Below, one piece after another: positions 39,581-43,248 of a DNA stretch of 64,000 bases; the stretch's first letter is position 1, and each line of letters begins with the position of its first letter. The translations under genes and the position numbers were made by a program. Origin of the DNA: Chromatiaceae bacterium (lineage in GTDB: Bacteria; Pseudomonadota; Gammaproteobacteria; Chromatiales; Chromatiaceae); the NCBI GenBank assembly GCA_019356535.1, contig CP037918.1, forward strand, positions 868,001-932,000, written 5' to 3'. A model generated the notes under the pieces. The model was not told where the DNA came from and did not search any database. It saw nothing but the letters and a program-made list of their open reading frames with translations.

Positions 39581-40258
39581 ATGAAGATTCTCTCGCTGGA
39601 TACCACCGAGCAGGCCTGTTCGGCGGCCTTGTTGCTGGATGACGAGCTCGTGGAGCGCTTCGAGATAGCGCCGCGTCAGCATTCGCGCCTGCTGCTGCCC
39701 ATGGTCGAGTCCCTGCTGGCCGAGGCGGGCCTGGCGCTGGCCCAGCTCGATGCCCTGGCCTTTGCGCGCGGGCCGGGCTCGTTCACCGGGGTGCGCATTG
39801 CCACGGCGGTGGTGCAGGGTCTGGCGCTGGGGGTCGATCTGCCGGTGGCGCCGGTCTCCAGCCTGCTGGCGCTGGCGCAGGGGGCGGCGCGCGAGAGCGG
39901 TGCCCGGCAAGTGCTGGCATTGCTGGATGCGCGCATGCAGGAGGTCTATGCCCTGGCCTGCGTGCGGGGCGAAGATGGCCTGATGCAACCGCAGGGCGCC
40001 GAGACAGTAGGCCCCCCTGCGGCCGTGAGCCTGCCCGGCGGCGGAGACTGGGTGCTGGCGGGCAGTGGGGTGGCGACCTATGGCGAGGTGCTGGCGCACC
40101 TGGGCGGAACGCGGCTGCCCGAGTGGCAGGTGCATGCGGCGGATGTGGCGCGGTTGGCGGTCGCCCTGGTACGCCGTGGCGAGACGGTGGCGGCCGAGGC
40201 GGCCTTGCCGGTGTATCTGCGTGACCAGGTGGCGCAGAAGATGACGCCGCTCAACTGA
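39581..40258 (+). CDS. tsaB: tRNA threonylcarbamoyladenosine biosynthesis protein TsaB
   Basis: TsaB is the dimerising partner of TsaD in making t6A37 of tRNAs. The 225-residue protein has the ASKHA-fold start KILSLDTTEQACSAAL, the family motif ARGPGSFTGVRI near 65 and QGLALG. It lacks the metal-binding His pair of TsaD, as expected. Its 3' end overlaps the convergent GTPase gene by 8 bases. Its usual neighbour yoaA lies about 6 kb upstream, beyond the cassette array. Confidence 0.93.
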   Translation: MKILSLDTTEQACSAALLLDDELVERFEIAPRQHSRLLLPMVESLLAEAGLALAQLDALAFARGPGSFTGVRIATAVVQGLALGVDLPVAPVSSLLALAQGAARESGARQVLALLDARMQEVYALACVRGEDGLMQPQGAETVGPPAAVSLPGGGDWVLAGSGVATYGEVLAHLGGTRLPEWQVHAADVARLAVALVRRGETVAAEAALPVYLRDQVAQKMTPLN

Positions 40259-41228
40259 GCAGGCAGCGGCGCAGCGCCGTTTCCAGCGCCTCGGCCTCCA
40301 GCGGGGCCGGGTCGATCAATTGCAGGCGCGAGGCCGTCTGCTCATCCGTTTTCCCGTCACGCACCGCTGCCGCATCGGCGCCGGCCCGATTGTATTCGAG
40401 TAGCCCCTCGGTGGTGTGCAATACCCCCTTGATGCGTTCGCAGGGCAGGGCGTTCAGCCAATCGAGCAGCGCCCTGCGTTCGAAACGCCAGTCGGGGCCG
40501 ATGTGCCAGCCGAGGCGGTGGAAGCCATCGGCCTCGCCTTCGTAACGCTGCCAGCGCCGGGCGTCGGACACCGGTTCTGGCGCCGCTTCGTCGGCGAGCA
40601 GGAAGGCATGGGCCTCGGGGAAGCTGGCCGTGCGCGGGCTGGCGTCCAGGCACAGCAGCTGCGGGTCGATGCGTCCCTGTTCGGTGATCGCCAGGCGTGC
40701 CGGCGGGGGTTGCAGCTCGGCGGCAAAGTCGAGGAACGCCTGCTGTTGCTGCGTGTCGCACAGGTCGGCCTTGTTGGCGATCAGCACGTCGGCTAGGTGG
40801 ATCTGGTCGCGGAACACGGGGTGGGCCAGGTGGCGGGGCGAGTCCAGGTGCCGGGGATCGACCAGGCAGAGGGTAGCTTCCAGGTGCAGCACCTCGCGGT
40901 AGAGCGGCGAGCGCAGGCGCTCCAGGATCTGCGCCGGGTGACCCAGTCCGCTGGGCTCGATGAGGATGCGTTCGGGGCGGTGAGCGCGGATCAGGCGGTT
41001 GAGTCCGACCTCGAAGGCCGGTGCGGCGACGCAGCACAGGCAGCCGCCGGCGACTTCCTCGATGGCCACACCCGTCTCGTCGAGCAGGGCGCCGTCGATG
41101 CCGACCTCGCCGAACTCGTTGACCAGTACGGCCCAGGTCTCGTTCTCGGGGTGGTGCGCCAGCAGGTGCCGGACCAGGGTGGTCTTGCCGGTGCCGAGGA
41201 AGCCGGTGACCAGGTTGACCGCGATCAT
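40251..41228 (-). CDS. CobW/YjiA-family GTPase (G3E metallochaperone)
   Basis: A 325-residue G3E GTPase: Walker A GFLGTGKTTL near residue 9, the metal-binding GCLCC (CxCC motif) near 63, and the G4 motif NKAD. The C-terminal half is the CobW-C domain. The family delivers zinc or other metals to client enzymes at the expense of GTP. It starts at 41228, overlapping the stop of the MotB/ZorB-like gene by 4 bases, so it is the third gene of that operon. Why a metallochaperone is coupled to a motor-like pair is not evident. Confidence 0.88.
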   Translation of the reverse strand: MIAVNLVTGFLGTGKTTLVRHLLAHHPENETWAVLVNEFGEVGIDGALLDETGVAIEEVAGGCLCCVAAPAFEVGLNRLIRAHRPERILIEPSGLGHPAQILERLRSPLYREVLHLEATLCLVDPRHLDSPRHLAHPVFRDQIHLADVLIANKADLCDTQQQQAFLDFAAELQPPPARLAITEQGRIDPQLLCLDASPRTASFPEAHAFLLADEAAPEPVSDARRWQRYEGEADGFHRLGWHIGPDWRFERRALLDWLNALPCERIKGVLHTTEGLLEYNRAGADAAAVRDGKTDEQTASRLQLIDPAPLEAEALETALRRCLLS

Positions 41229-42274
41229 TTGTCGCCTGTGACGTCGGCCCGGGGGGCGTCCTTTGCCGCCTGGCCGTCGTCGCGGAAGTAGTAGTCGTAG
41301 TTGCGGTGCAGGTGGTTGGTGAACTCCCAGGCCTCGTTGTAGGACAGACCGCTGTTCTCGGGGAAGATCACCTTCACGTACAGGCCGTTGGGATACTGCT
41401 TGAGCAGGCGGCTCAGTACCAGATCCAGGTGTTTGCGGCTGATCGGCTGGAATTCGCCCTTGTTGCCCTCGTGCCAGGCGATGCGGTATTGGCCGCCTTC
41501 CTTCCAGTACCGTACCTCGACCACGTGGCGGCCGGCCGGCGAGCGCGCCGGGCGTATCAGCTTGTCGTACTTGACCTTGAGGTTGTCATAGTCGCCGGCC
41601 AGCACCAGGTACTTGCGCTCGACCTCCTGCGCCGCCTGGCGCGCGGCCTCGAGCGCGCGGCTGCGCTCGTCGAGGTCCTCTTGCAGGCGGTCGGCGCGGG
41701 TTTGGGCGTCGCGCAGGCTGGCTTGCAGGCTGTCGATGTTGGCTCTCAGGCTGTCCACGTCGCTGCGGCTGGCCTGGAGTTCGAGCTCGCGGTTCTTCAG
41801 CGATTGCTCGAGCATGGTCAGGCGTGCCTGTTGGTCCTTGAGTCGGCCCTCGAGTCGCTGCCGGTCGACGGCGAGTCGATCAGCCTTGCGCTCGAGCGCG
41901 TCGCGCGCCTCTGTCAGGCGGTTGATGGTCGCGATCTGGTCGGTGATGACCTTTTCACGGTCCACGGCCTTCTCGCGCAGGCGCAGGATCTCAAGCCGGG
42001 CCTGGCGCAGCTCGGCCTCGGTGCGGTGCAGGGCCATGGAGAGGCTGTCCTTTTCCTCGCCGGTGGCGCGCGCCAGCTCGGCGGCGATGCGTTCGGCTTC
42101 CATGGTGGCGCGCAGTTGGCGTACCAGCTCCATGTTGCGCACCAGCAGCACCACCAGGGCGATCAGGAAGATCATGACCACGGTGGTCATGATGTCGGTG
42201 AACGAGGGCCAGAAGCTCTCGTTGACCTGGCCTTCCTGGCGGTTCAGCCGCAGATCGGTGAAGCCGTCGTTCAT
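41225..42274 (-). CDS. MotB/ZorB-like membrane protein with long coiled coil
   Basis: A 349-residue protein with one N-terminal membrane helix that carries a central acidic residue (FTDIMTTVVMIFLIALVVLL, D27), as in MotB, ExbD and ZorB where this Asp carries protons. Residues ~50-235 are a continuous predicted coiled coil (repeated Leu/Arg/Glu heptads). The last ~100 residues (VVEVRYWKEGGQYRIAWHE; SGLSYNEAWEF) could be a divergent OmpA-like or unrelated globular domain. It is the second gene of an operon, overlapping its MotA-like partner by 4 bases. I do not recognise the exact family. Confidence 0.72.
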   Translation of the reverse strand: MNDGFTDLRLNRQEGQVNESFWPSFTDIMTTVVMIFLIALVVLLVRNMELVRQLRATMEAERIAAELARATGEEKDSLSMALHRTEAELRQARLEILRLREKAVDREKVITDQIATINRLTEARDALERKADRLAVDRQRLEGRLKDQQARLTMLEQSLKNRELELQASRSDVDSLRANIDSLQASLRDAQTRADRLQEDLDERSRALEAARQAAQEVERKYLVLAGDYDNLKVKYDKLIRPARSPAGRHVVEVRYWKEGGQYRIAWHEGNKGEFQPISRKHLDLVLSRLLKQYPNGLYVKVIFPENSGLSYNEAWEFTNHLHRNYDYYFRDDGQAAKDAPRADVTGDK

Positions 42275-43248
42275 TCGTCGTCACGCAGGCGGAAGCCCAG
42301 GCGCAGCATGCGCAGGATATCCGTCATGTGGTCCTCGAGATTGTCCACCTTGCCGCGATAGTGCTCCAGGGTCTCGACGATTTGCTGCTCGGTCTCCCTG
42401 AAGGCCTTCTGCGAGTTGGCCATCTCGGCGACCAGGGATTGCAGCGAGCGGATCAAACCGGTGAACTCGTAGAGCACGGTGTCGGTTTCGACCTGGAAGC
42501 GCGGCATCAGGTAATTGGTGGTGACCTGTTCGATGGCGCTCACCAGGTTGGTCTGGGCGTCGTTCAGCCGCAGGTAGAAATAGCCGAAGAACACGTAGCA
42601 GACGATGGCGGTGATGGTGGTGGACAGCGCGGTGGACATGCCATGGATCACCATGCCCATGCCCGAGGCCGAGACGGCGTTCTCGAGTACGTCGGAGGCG
42701 CCGATCAGCGCGATCGACAGCGACACGATGGTGCCGAATACCCCGGTGAGGATGAGGATGTTGTTGACAAACTTCGCCAGGCTGCTGCGCGTGCTCTCGG
42801 TAGCCACCAGGGTGGAGGCCAGTGCGTTCTGGTTGATCGGGGTATGGGTCTCGTGCAGCTTGAGCAGGGTGCGGTAGCGTTGCGCGATCAGGCTGCGCTT
42901 CGGCACGCCGCGTAGCGCATCGTCGGGGCGCTTGTGCAGGTTGCGCACGAAGCGCGTCAGGGCGGCTTCTTCTCGCGCATAGCCCATCAGGCTGATAGCC
43001 ATGCGCAACATGCCGATCAGAAACAGGACCACGATGGCGCCATTGATCACCCAGCCCAGTTCGGTGAGCTGATCCTTGAAGTAGATGGTGTTGATCAGGC
43101 TCCACTTCCAGTAGAGCAGGCCGGTGGCTACGACGATCAGCACGAACATGCGCAACAGGGTGTTGCGGCTGTAGTGGCGATGGAAGTTGATGTTGTCCAA
43201 GTCCTTGGTCCTCGTGCGCGGGCCATTGGAGACCGGCGATTCTAGCAT
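42271..43248 (-). CDS. MotA/TolQ/ExbB-like proton channel protein
   Basis: A 325-residue protein with four predicted membrane helices: ~32-52, ~66-88, ~160-183 (NNILILTGVFGTIVSLSIAL) and ~207-228 (STTITAIVCYVFFGYFY). The last two, with GTIVSL and a polar Thr/Ser-rich face, match the MotA/TolQ/ExbB channel core. The C-terminal ~90 residues are helical. With the next gene it should form an ion-driven motor of the 5:2 type. It heads a three-gene operon transcribed from the shared gap at 43249-43376. Confidence 0.78.
   Translation of the reverse strand: MLESPVSNGPRTRTKDLDNINFHRHYSRNTLLRMFVLIVVATGLLYWKWSLINTIYFKDQLTELGWVINGAIVVLFLIGMLRMAISLMGYAREEAALTRFVRNLHKRPDDALRGVPKRSLIAQRYRTLLKLHETHTPINQNALASTLVATESTRSSLAKFVNNILILTGVFGTIVSLSIALIGASDVLENAVSASGMGMVIHGMSTALSTTITAIVCYVFFGYFYLRLNDAQTNLVSAIEQVTTNYLMPRFQVETDTVLYEFTGLIRSLQSLVAEMANSQKAFRETEQQIVETLEHYRGKVDNLEDHMTDILRMLRLGFRLRDDE

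What the first reader, a model, noticed from the sequence alone, without database searches (positions are those of the whole stretch)
40251..43248. ZorAB-like motor pair in an operon with a CobW-type GTPase
A four-helix MotA/ExbB-like protein and a one-helix MotB/ZorB-like protein (Asp27 in the membrane helix, very long coiled coil) overlap by 4 bases, and the GTPase overlaps by 4 more. ZorC, ZorD or ZorE-like partners and flagellar or Tol genes are absent. The pair could be an ion-driven envelope motor of unknown purpose or a minimal relative of Zorya.
Basis: partly seen in the sequence, partly recalled or inferred. Interest (0 to 1): 0.55.

Follow-up and report, generated by a model that had tools for sequence, protein, structure and literature searches.

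The report
Envelope motor with long coiled-coil stalk
Two neighbouring genes encode a stand-alone membrane motor, a distant cousin of the flagellar and Tol motors, whose central axle carries an unusually long coiled-coil rod; it is a conserved but unstudied machine, not a known phage-defence system.

Summary
The genes are real and placed as stated, on the minus strand, with two 4-base overlaps. The A-B pair is a conserved two-gene family in Gammaproteobacteria, Zetaproteobacteria and Desulfuromonadales: B follows A in 45 of 45 named loci. The GTPase is a local neighbour, next to the pair in 11 of 96 testable loci. It is not Zorya: the B subunit's end domain matches TolR/ExbD in predicted fold (Z 7.7), Pfam finds no OmpA-type domain in 43 heads, and no Zorya partner lies beside it. 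Nor is it a plain TolQR/ExbBD: the A subunits branch away from TolQ/ExbB/MotA (UFBoot 99) and I recognised no TolA/TonB nearby. The distinctive feature is the rod between membrane helix and head: about 190 residues here, about 100 to 550 across the family. Of 47 inferred length changes 35 are whole heptads, 11 are of the 3/4-residue class, 1 is other. A near-identical B lacks exactly 13 heptads. A ends in a near-invariant GFRL motif (100 of 103). Best reading: an ion-driven 5:2 envelope motor whose axle is held far out in the periplasm. Its output partner is unknown.

The parts
42271..43248 (-). A subunit (MotA/TolQ/ExbB superfamily), 325 aa; four membrane helices by eye, cytosolic middle and C-terminal helices
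   Evidence: PF01618 21.4 bits, just under its cut-off of 22.9, 23.7 bits and over it in the genome search; 35 of 46 family members match PF01618 at E<=0.01; fold ExbB/TolQ Z 11-13
42286..42297 (-). GFRL motif (residues 318-321) at the C-terminus of A, inferred cytosolic
   Evidence: G318 F319 R320 L321 invariant in 46 of 46; GFRL in 100 of 103 non-identical pairs, GFRI in the other three
41225..42274 (-). B subunit (axle), 349 aa: short N-tail, one membrane helix, coiled-coil stalk, TolR/ExbD-like head
42137..42205 (-). B membrane helix (about residues 24-46) with the presumed ion-binding Asp27
   Evidence: D27 invariant in 44 of 44; extent judged by eye
41567..42136 (-). B coiled-coil stalk, about residues 47-236, roughly 28 nm if straight
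   Evidence: period 3.50; family-wide peak 3.50; length changes mostly in heptads
41285..41533 (-). B head, residues 248-330, TolR/ExbD fold; conserved YDYY near its end
   Evidence: TolR 2jwk Z 7.7, 73 of 74 residues, 2.3 A; 5by4 Z 7.7; ExbD 8p9r Z 6.4, 8vgc Z 6.1
40251..41228 (-). CobW/COG0523-type GTPase, 325 aa; co-operonic neighbour in this lineage, not part of the conserved motor
   Evidence: PF02492 E 4.1e-44; beside the pair in 11 of 96 testable loci

Best explanation
The two genes encode a stand-alone ion-driven motor of the 5:2 kind in the inner membrane. Inferred from the superfamily: five A subunits form a ring around the paired membrane helices of two B subunits, and ions pass between Asp27 of B and threonines of A (T173, T210, T211, invariant). 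Shown by sequence: after its membrane helix B is a long coiled coil with a conserved head. Shown by predicted fold: the head is TolR/ExbD-like. Inferred: stalk and head lie in the periplasm, the head holds the axle to the wall or the outer-membrane side, and ion flow turns the A ring against it. Output: I put 0.45 on a cytosolic client of the A tails (GFRL tips) and 0.35 on force sent outward through the stalk. The GTPase is not a motor part.
For: B follows A in 45 of 45 loci. In the wider fetch (132 loci, window included, chosen because A matched there) 127 hold A at E<=1e-20 and 125 of these hold B; the two without a neighbouring B carry a full-length B elsewhere in the genome. Invariant D27 and invariant T173, T210, T211. 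A core matches ExbB/TolQ above all unrelated rows. Head matches TolR and ExbD at ranks 1, 2, 3 and 5 of the listed entries, 994 chains aligned. After the membrane helix, 103 B proteins hold 4 cysteines in 29,468 residues against 222 in 35,559 residues of A, as expected for an exported part, though coiled coils are cysteine-poor anyway. Stalk lengths keep heptad phase. The best non-family profile hits have a B with a long coil and an OmpA head (Pfam on L116 only), which suggests an anchoring head.
Against: Stoichiometry, ion and rotation are untested. The head-TolR link is weak by sequence: hhalign probability 0.7% although the register agrees, ExbD in 3 of 43 heads at best E 0.003, and Foldseek's listed top 50 holds no TolR. 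Among the A fold matches, unrelated helical designs start at Z 11.1, so the ZorA (10-11) and MotA (8-9.5) rows do not stand clear of them. Stalks from about 100 to 550 residues do not fit a fixed reach to the outer membrane. The B N-tail is net negative in 92 of 101, unlike TolR/ExbD or MotB, so charge does not support the inferred orientation. Two zeta-type loci (L187, L188) have a B without the head. The OmpA-headed relatives group with ZorA-type sequences, not next to the family, in the tree.
Confidence: 0.58

Rival explanations
1. A plain ExbBD/TolQR-type energiser with a long linker that drives an unlinked TonB or TolA.
For: Head and A core have the TolR/ExbD and ExbB/TolQ folds.
Against: A branches outside TolQ/ExbB (UFBoot 99); the genome has its own TolQR and two ExbBD pairs, one beside a TonB-like gene (by eye); no transducer recognised among the neighbour proteins I read.
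Confidence: 0.14
2. A minimal Zorya: the motor senses phage injection and signals to effectors encoded elsewhere.
For: A and B weakly match ZorA/ZorB models; the best PDB sequence matches of A are ZorA-type chains 8vvi (E 0.003) and 8vvn (E 0.017); the A tree puts the family nearer ZorA-type and other generic motors than TolQ/ExbB/MotA.
Against: Far below the ZorA_2 cut-off; no OmpA head; short A tail; no Zorya model hit in 7 flanking proteins; neighbours read are mostly housekeeping genes; A not found in 72,556 plasmid or 50,697 phage records at E 1e-5.
Confidence: 0.07
3. A three-gene metal-handling system in which the COG0523 GTPase loads or regulates a metal for the motor or for envelope transport.
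For: B-GTPase spacing of -11 to +3 bases in the nine named loci that have it; in the window's genus pair and GTPase sit side by side in 6 of 8 genomes (one GTPase broken) and both are missing in G752; G254 keeps only a GTPase end on another contig.
Against: Absent beside the pair in 85 of 96 testable loci, L008 of the same lineage included; frame broken in the near-identical relative G751 while A and B stay open, unless that is a sequencing error.
Confidence: 0.07
4. Inverted axle: the B stalk and head lie in the cytosol, so the motor drives a cytosolic arm.
For: B N-tail net negative in 92 of 101; stalks up to 547 residues (about 80 nm) exceed the usual periplasm width (general knowledge).
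Against: Near absence of cysteine after the membrane helix; D27 sits near the same end of the helix as in TolR/ExbD/MotB; TolR-type head.
Confidence: 0.05

Closest known systems
TolQR / ExbBD
   Same: Predicted fold of the A core and of the B head; Asp in the axle helix.
   Different: A has an extra N-terminal membrane helix and a GFRL tail; about 190-residue coiled coil between helix and head; separate branch; no TolA/TonB recognised nearby.
ZorAB (Zorya)
   Same: Four-helix A with a cytosolic tail, similar axle signature, weak model hits, best PDB sequence matches.
   Different: ZorB carries a peptidoglycan-binding domain and ZorA a long cytosolic extension, both needed for defence (PMC11890865, passages); here a TolR-type head, a short tail and no effectors beside the pair.
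GldLM (T9SS/gliding motor)
   Same: Axle with a long periplasmic shaft (18 nm for GldM; PMC9389320, passages).
   Different: GldM has four periplasmic domains; here a coiled coil plus one head. Homology to GldLM was not tested.
TolQ-like motors with a vWA axle
   Same: Two-gene motor with an output domain fused to the transpore helix (PMC12204202, passages).
   Different: vWA output there, TolR-like head on a long coil here.
MotAB flagellar stator
   Same: Four-helix A; axle signature similar by eye to W-x-x-S-Y-A-D (hhalign only 28%).
   Different: No OmpA head, no flagellar neighbours recognised; the genome has two other stator pairs.

Membership tests
Zorya (ZorAB) | ZorA family score over curated cut-off | tested here: not met
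   NF033915 10.5 bits, cut-off 100
Zorya (ZorAB) | OmpA-type peptidoglycan-binding domain on B | tested here: not met
   No OmpA among the 23 families matched by any of 43 heads at E<=1; the same library rings at 1e-17 on the OmpA-headed relative L116
Zorya (ZorAB) | Long cytosolic ZorA extension | tested here: not met
   A is 325 aa; L077, the one ZorA_2 hit over the cut-off, is 778 aa
Zorya (ZorAB) | ZorC/ZorD, ZorE or type III partners beside the pair | tested here: not met
   No Zorya model hits in 7 flanking window proteins; neighbours elsewhere read by eye
Zorya (ZorAB) | ZorC (EH signature) anywhere in the genome | tested here: inconclusive
   PF15611 0 of 1, but no control genome rang
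TolQR/ExbBD | ExbB/TolQ fold of the A core | tested here: met
   Z 13.4, 207 residues, 3.4 A to ExbB 5sv1; ExbB/TolQ entries fill ranks 1-18, unrelated rows start at Z 11.1; best Foldseek E 1.2e-3
TolQR/ExbBD | TolR/ExbD-type periplasmic domain on B | tested here: met
   Fold only: Z 7.7, 73 residues, 2.3 A. Sequence support marginal
TolQR/ExbBD | A branches within TolQ/ExbB | tested here: not met
   Separated with UFBoot 99
TolQR/ExbBD | TolA/TonB (with TolB/Pal) adjacent | tested here: not met
   Not beside the pair in the window (Pfam of flanks); none recognised by eye among neighbours read elsewhere
MotAB flagellar stator | OmpA head; A within the MotA branch | tested here: not met
   No OmpA in 43 heads; A outside the MotA branch
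GldLM | GldL/GldM homology | not tested
   No GldL or GldM profile was run
5:2 ion-driven motors | Adjacent A and B genes, Asp in the axle helix | tested here: met
5:2 ion-driven motors | A5B2 stoichiometry and ion-driven rotation | not testable with these tools
   Only single chains can be predicted here
CobW/COG0523 GTPase (third gene) | CobW domain with GxxGxGKT and CxCC motifs | tested here: met
   PF02492 E 4.1e-44; GFLGTGKTT and GGCLCC read (motif names recalled)

The most novel reading that the evidence does not exclude
An undescribed family of two-gene 5:2 motors in which the axle itself is a phase-locked coiled-coil drive shaft ending in a TolR-like head. Torque or pull would be carried across the periplasm by the axle, without TolA or TonB. 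Shaft length evolves in whole heptads, while the GFRL tips of the ring engage a cytosolic partner.
Probability: 0.33. Interest if true: 0.75.

Novelty: new variant of a known kind. Interest (0 to 1): 0.5.

Why it matters
Known 5:2 motors pass their force on through a rotor, through TolA/TonB, or through a globular shaft (general knowledge and the passages). A family with a TolR-type head on a coiled coil of widely varying length but conserved heptad phase is a natural test of whether these axles work as rigid shafts, as tethers or as anchors. A near-identical pair of B proteins differing by exactly 13 heptads makes that directly testable. The GFRL tail motif gives a handle for finding a cytosolic client.

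Tried and rejected
Minimal Zorya and three-gene CobW system: see the rivals. 'Strictly periplasm-spanning reach' was my first mechanism. I lowered it because stalk lengths run from about 100 to 550 residues, with one of about 100 in a close relative. Conserved neighbour: none found; clusters recur mainly within lineages. MlaC-type genes (PF05494 in the three tested) lie near the pair in 7 loci in two arrangements, too few to argue from. Foldseek on B gave no TolR in its listed top 50. hhalign of the whole B with TolR/ExbD found only the membrane helix (6.9%), with MotB 28% over helix and coil, and of the heads only 0.7% with TolR/ExbD and 0.1% with MotB. A profile of the A family found no motor chain in the PDB by sequence up to E 1, although the single window sequence found two ZorA-type chains; the head profile found nothing relevant. 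ZorC search was uninformative. Promoter and terminator scan: nothing. tRNA and Rfam scans: nothing.

Rows dropped: L017 and L019 from A2; L032, L036 and L040 from A6; 6 of 25 TolR/ExbD candidates from A4 and 2 of 9 MotB-type candidates from A5; in the tree, 17 of 46 family members plus two more were used, and of seven sequences labelled ZorA-type only L077 is over the ZorA_2 cut-off. Loci without A (L116-L119, L201) were left out of the pair counts, and 125 pairs were cut to 103 by identical last 150 B residues. L188 and L187 were left out of the final stalk count because they lack the head. Alignment A3 had the window row in a wrong frame and was replaced by A6. The script stopped after the alignment (thread setting); the tree was run.

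Literature: 8 searches were run. I saw none in their listings that describes this family; the library is open-access only, so absence there is weak evidence.
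Full report
Observation. The window holds three minus-strand genes with two 4-base overlaps: A (42271-43248), B (41225-42274) and a COG0523/CobW-type GTPase (40251-41228). A divergent DUF455 gene and a convergent tsaB-type gene flank them (tsaB is my reading of a TsaD-family hit). The window lies in a 2.75-Mb single-contig genome at C1:868001-932000.

Conservation. A scan of species genomes returned 45 loci, from gammaproteobacteria (records titled Sedimenticola, Chromatiaceae, Thiobius, Solemya velum gill symbiont and others), Zetaproteobacteria (Mariprofundus) and Desulfuromonadales. B follows A on the same strand in all 45, with gaps from -25 to +11 bases, most often -4 (19 of 45). 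In a sample of 369 genomes of the class, 65 match A at E<=1e-3; 55 of these are strong (E below 1e-70) and 10 are weak. Of 398 genomes of the phylum sample 31 match, 28 strongly, of which 24 are in family f207, 3 in f227 and 1 is the window's genome. f207 looks like Mariprofundaceae: one contig length equals that of M. ferrooxydans PV-1 (inference). Within families the pair is patchy: 50 of 116 strong in the window's family, 24 of 74 in f207. No match to A in plasmid or phage records. In the wider set (132 loci, window included, picked because A matched there) 127 hold A at E<=1e-20 and 125 of these hold B; in the two exceptions (G406, G556) a complete B lies elsewhere in the genome. In those two, A and B persist together though unlinked.

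The GTPase. It stands next to B in 11 of 96 loci with at least 1.1 kb of DNA after B, all in the lineage around the window. In the window's genus, 6 of 8 genomes (G000, G747-G751) have the pair and the GTPase side by side. G752 lacks both. G254 has the pair at a contig end and only a GTPase end on another contig. In G751 the GTPase reading frame is broken, or misread. It is a lineage neighbour, not a conserved motor part.

What A is. PF01618 is borderline but 35 of 46 family members match it at E<=0.01. The best PDB matches by sequence are ZorA-type chains 8vvi and 8vvn (E 0.003, 0.017; that both are ZorA is for 8vvn and recalled for 8vvi). AlphaFold2 (46 rows, mean pLDDT 83.1) gives helices 16-19, 26-47, 49-58, 63-106, 120-133, 140-189 and 195-318. 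Structural alignment puts ExbB/TolQ entries at ranks 1-18 (Z 11-13). ZorA (10-11) and MotA (8-9.5) follow, but mixed with unrelated helical designs from Z 11.1 down, so those rows prove little alone. A maximum-likelihood tree of 49 A subunits over 202 columns (Q.pfam+R5) separates the family from everything else (UFBoot 100) and puts it, with ZorA-type and other generic motors, apart from TolQ, ExbB and MotA (UFBoot 99). Deeper order is unresolved (50). The last residues L-x-x-GFRL are the signature: GFRL in 100 of 103, GFRI in three, after a variable tail.

What B is. The axle helix has an invariant Asp27 (44 of 44). AlphaFold2 (44 rows, mean pLDDT 80.9, pTM 0.35) draws one helix 27-239 and then a beta-beta-alpha-beta-alpha head. 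Of 994 chains aligned, TolR 5by4 and 2jwk (Z 7.7) and ExbD 8p9r and 8vgc (Z 6.4, 6.1) are entries 1, 2, 3 and 5; the tool notes that a best Z of 7 to 8 is common for models without a clear match, but four entries of one fold family at the top is not what chance is likely to give. Sequence support is marginal: 3 of 43 heads match ExbD (best E 0.003), and hhalign gives 0.7% in the register expected. No head matches OmpA.

The stalk. From Asp27 to the P-A-R-S motif the distance is 215 residues in the window, with a median of 194 and a range of 124-572 over 101 non-identical B proteins; the coil itself is about 25 residues shorter. Modulo 7, 87 of 101 fall in one class, 13 in the class shifted by 4 (the stutter class of coiled coils; term recalled) and 1 elsewhere. 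On a tree of A subunits, parsimony gives 47 length changes: 35 multiples of 7, 11 of the 3/4 class, 1 other (binomial p about 2e-20 against 1/7; events are parsimony estimates). In sister pairs alone, 9 of 13 differences are multiples of 7 and the other 4 are of the 3/4 class. Control: the A tail shows 1 multiple of 7 in 16 changes. G751, same genus, has a B that aligns almost identically with the window's outside one gap of exactly 91 residues. Of 102 stalks, 98 have no proline, and the mean period is 3.50. This is strong evidence for a continuous coiled coil under register constraint. It does not by itself show torque transmission, since any coiled coil disfavours register shifts (general knowledge).

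Topology. Homology (position of Asp27, TolR-type head) places stalk and head in the periplasm. Supporting: 4 cysteines in 29,468 residues after the membrane helix in 103 B proteins, against 222 in 35,559 residues of A (A frames taken stop to stop; coiled coils are cysteine-poor anyway). Against: the N-tail is net negative in 92 of 101, whereas TolR/ExbD and MotB tails are positive and two ZorB-like tails are neutral.

Mechanism. By homology with 5:2 motors (PMC9389320, passages), ion flow through Asp27 and the A threonines should turn ring and axle against each other. In most such models the axle is held by the wall and the ring turns; in GldLM the shaft is thought to turn. The best non-family profile hits (L116, L117) have a long coil with an OmpA head (Pfam on L116), which suggests that the head is an anchor, although in the tree they group with ZorA-type sequences. 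With the near-invariant GFRL tips this makes a cytosolic output slightly more likely (0.45) than an outward one (0.35). I found no partner encoded nearby: the neighbour proteins read are mostly housekeeping enzymes such as ferrochelatase, GlnE, DnaB, ProA/ProB and TsaD (named by eye).

Known or new. The 2025 survey of MotAB relatives describes diverse generic ion transporters with a compact fold in place of the OmpA motif (PMC12505986, abstract, passages and two sections). A 2025 study reports vWA-fused axles (PMC12204202, passages). The eight literature searches listed in Tried and rejected did not show this architecture. I call it a new variant of a known kind.

Noticed in passing
L200 (G751), compared with window 41225-42274: B lacks exactly 91 residues (13 heptads) of stalk and is otherwise nearly identical; the neighbouring GTPase frame is broken or misread.
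   Followed up: partly
L192, L193 (G556, G406) and L221, L222: A and B are unlinked; A is followed directly by a NadD-like gene (named by eye) and a full B lies elsewhere.
   Followed up: partly
L187, L188: Zeta-type B variants whose coil ends without the TolR-like head.
   Followed up: no
L088:1123-2934, L087: Another small motor: a MotA/ExbB-type A (PF01618 for L088) followed by a B that looks like membrane helix plus vWA-like domain (by eye for L088; no Pfam hit), like the vWA axles of PMC12204202.
   Followed up: partly
L118, L119 (4747-8813): A-type subunit with a GMSTALNTT motif; in L119 a vWA-FHA protein (PF13519, PF00498) lies nearby.
   Followed up: partly
L116, L117: A-B pair with long coil and OmpA head beside an SDR-type gene; the own-genome stator L050 also has an SDR-type neighbour (by eye).
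   Followed up: partly
L129, L131, L140, L151; L020, L023, L025: MlaC-type gene (PF05494 in the three tested) just upstream of A in four loci and a few genes downstream in three.
   Followed up: partly
L019, L156, L160: B stalks of about 400-550 residues that look grown by short tandem repeats (by eye).
   Followed up: no
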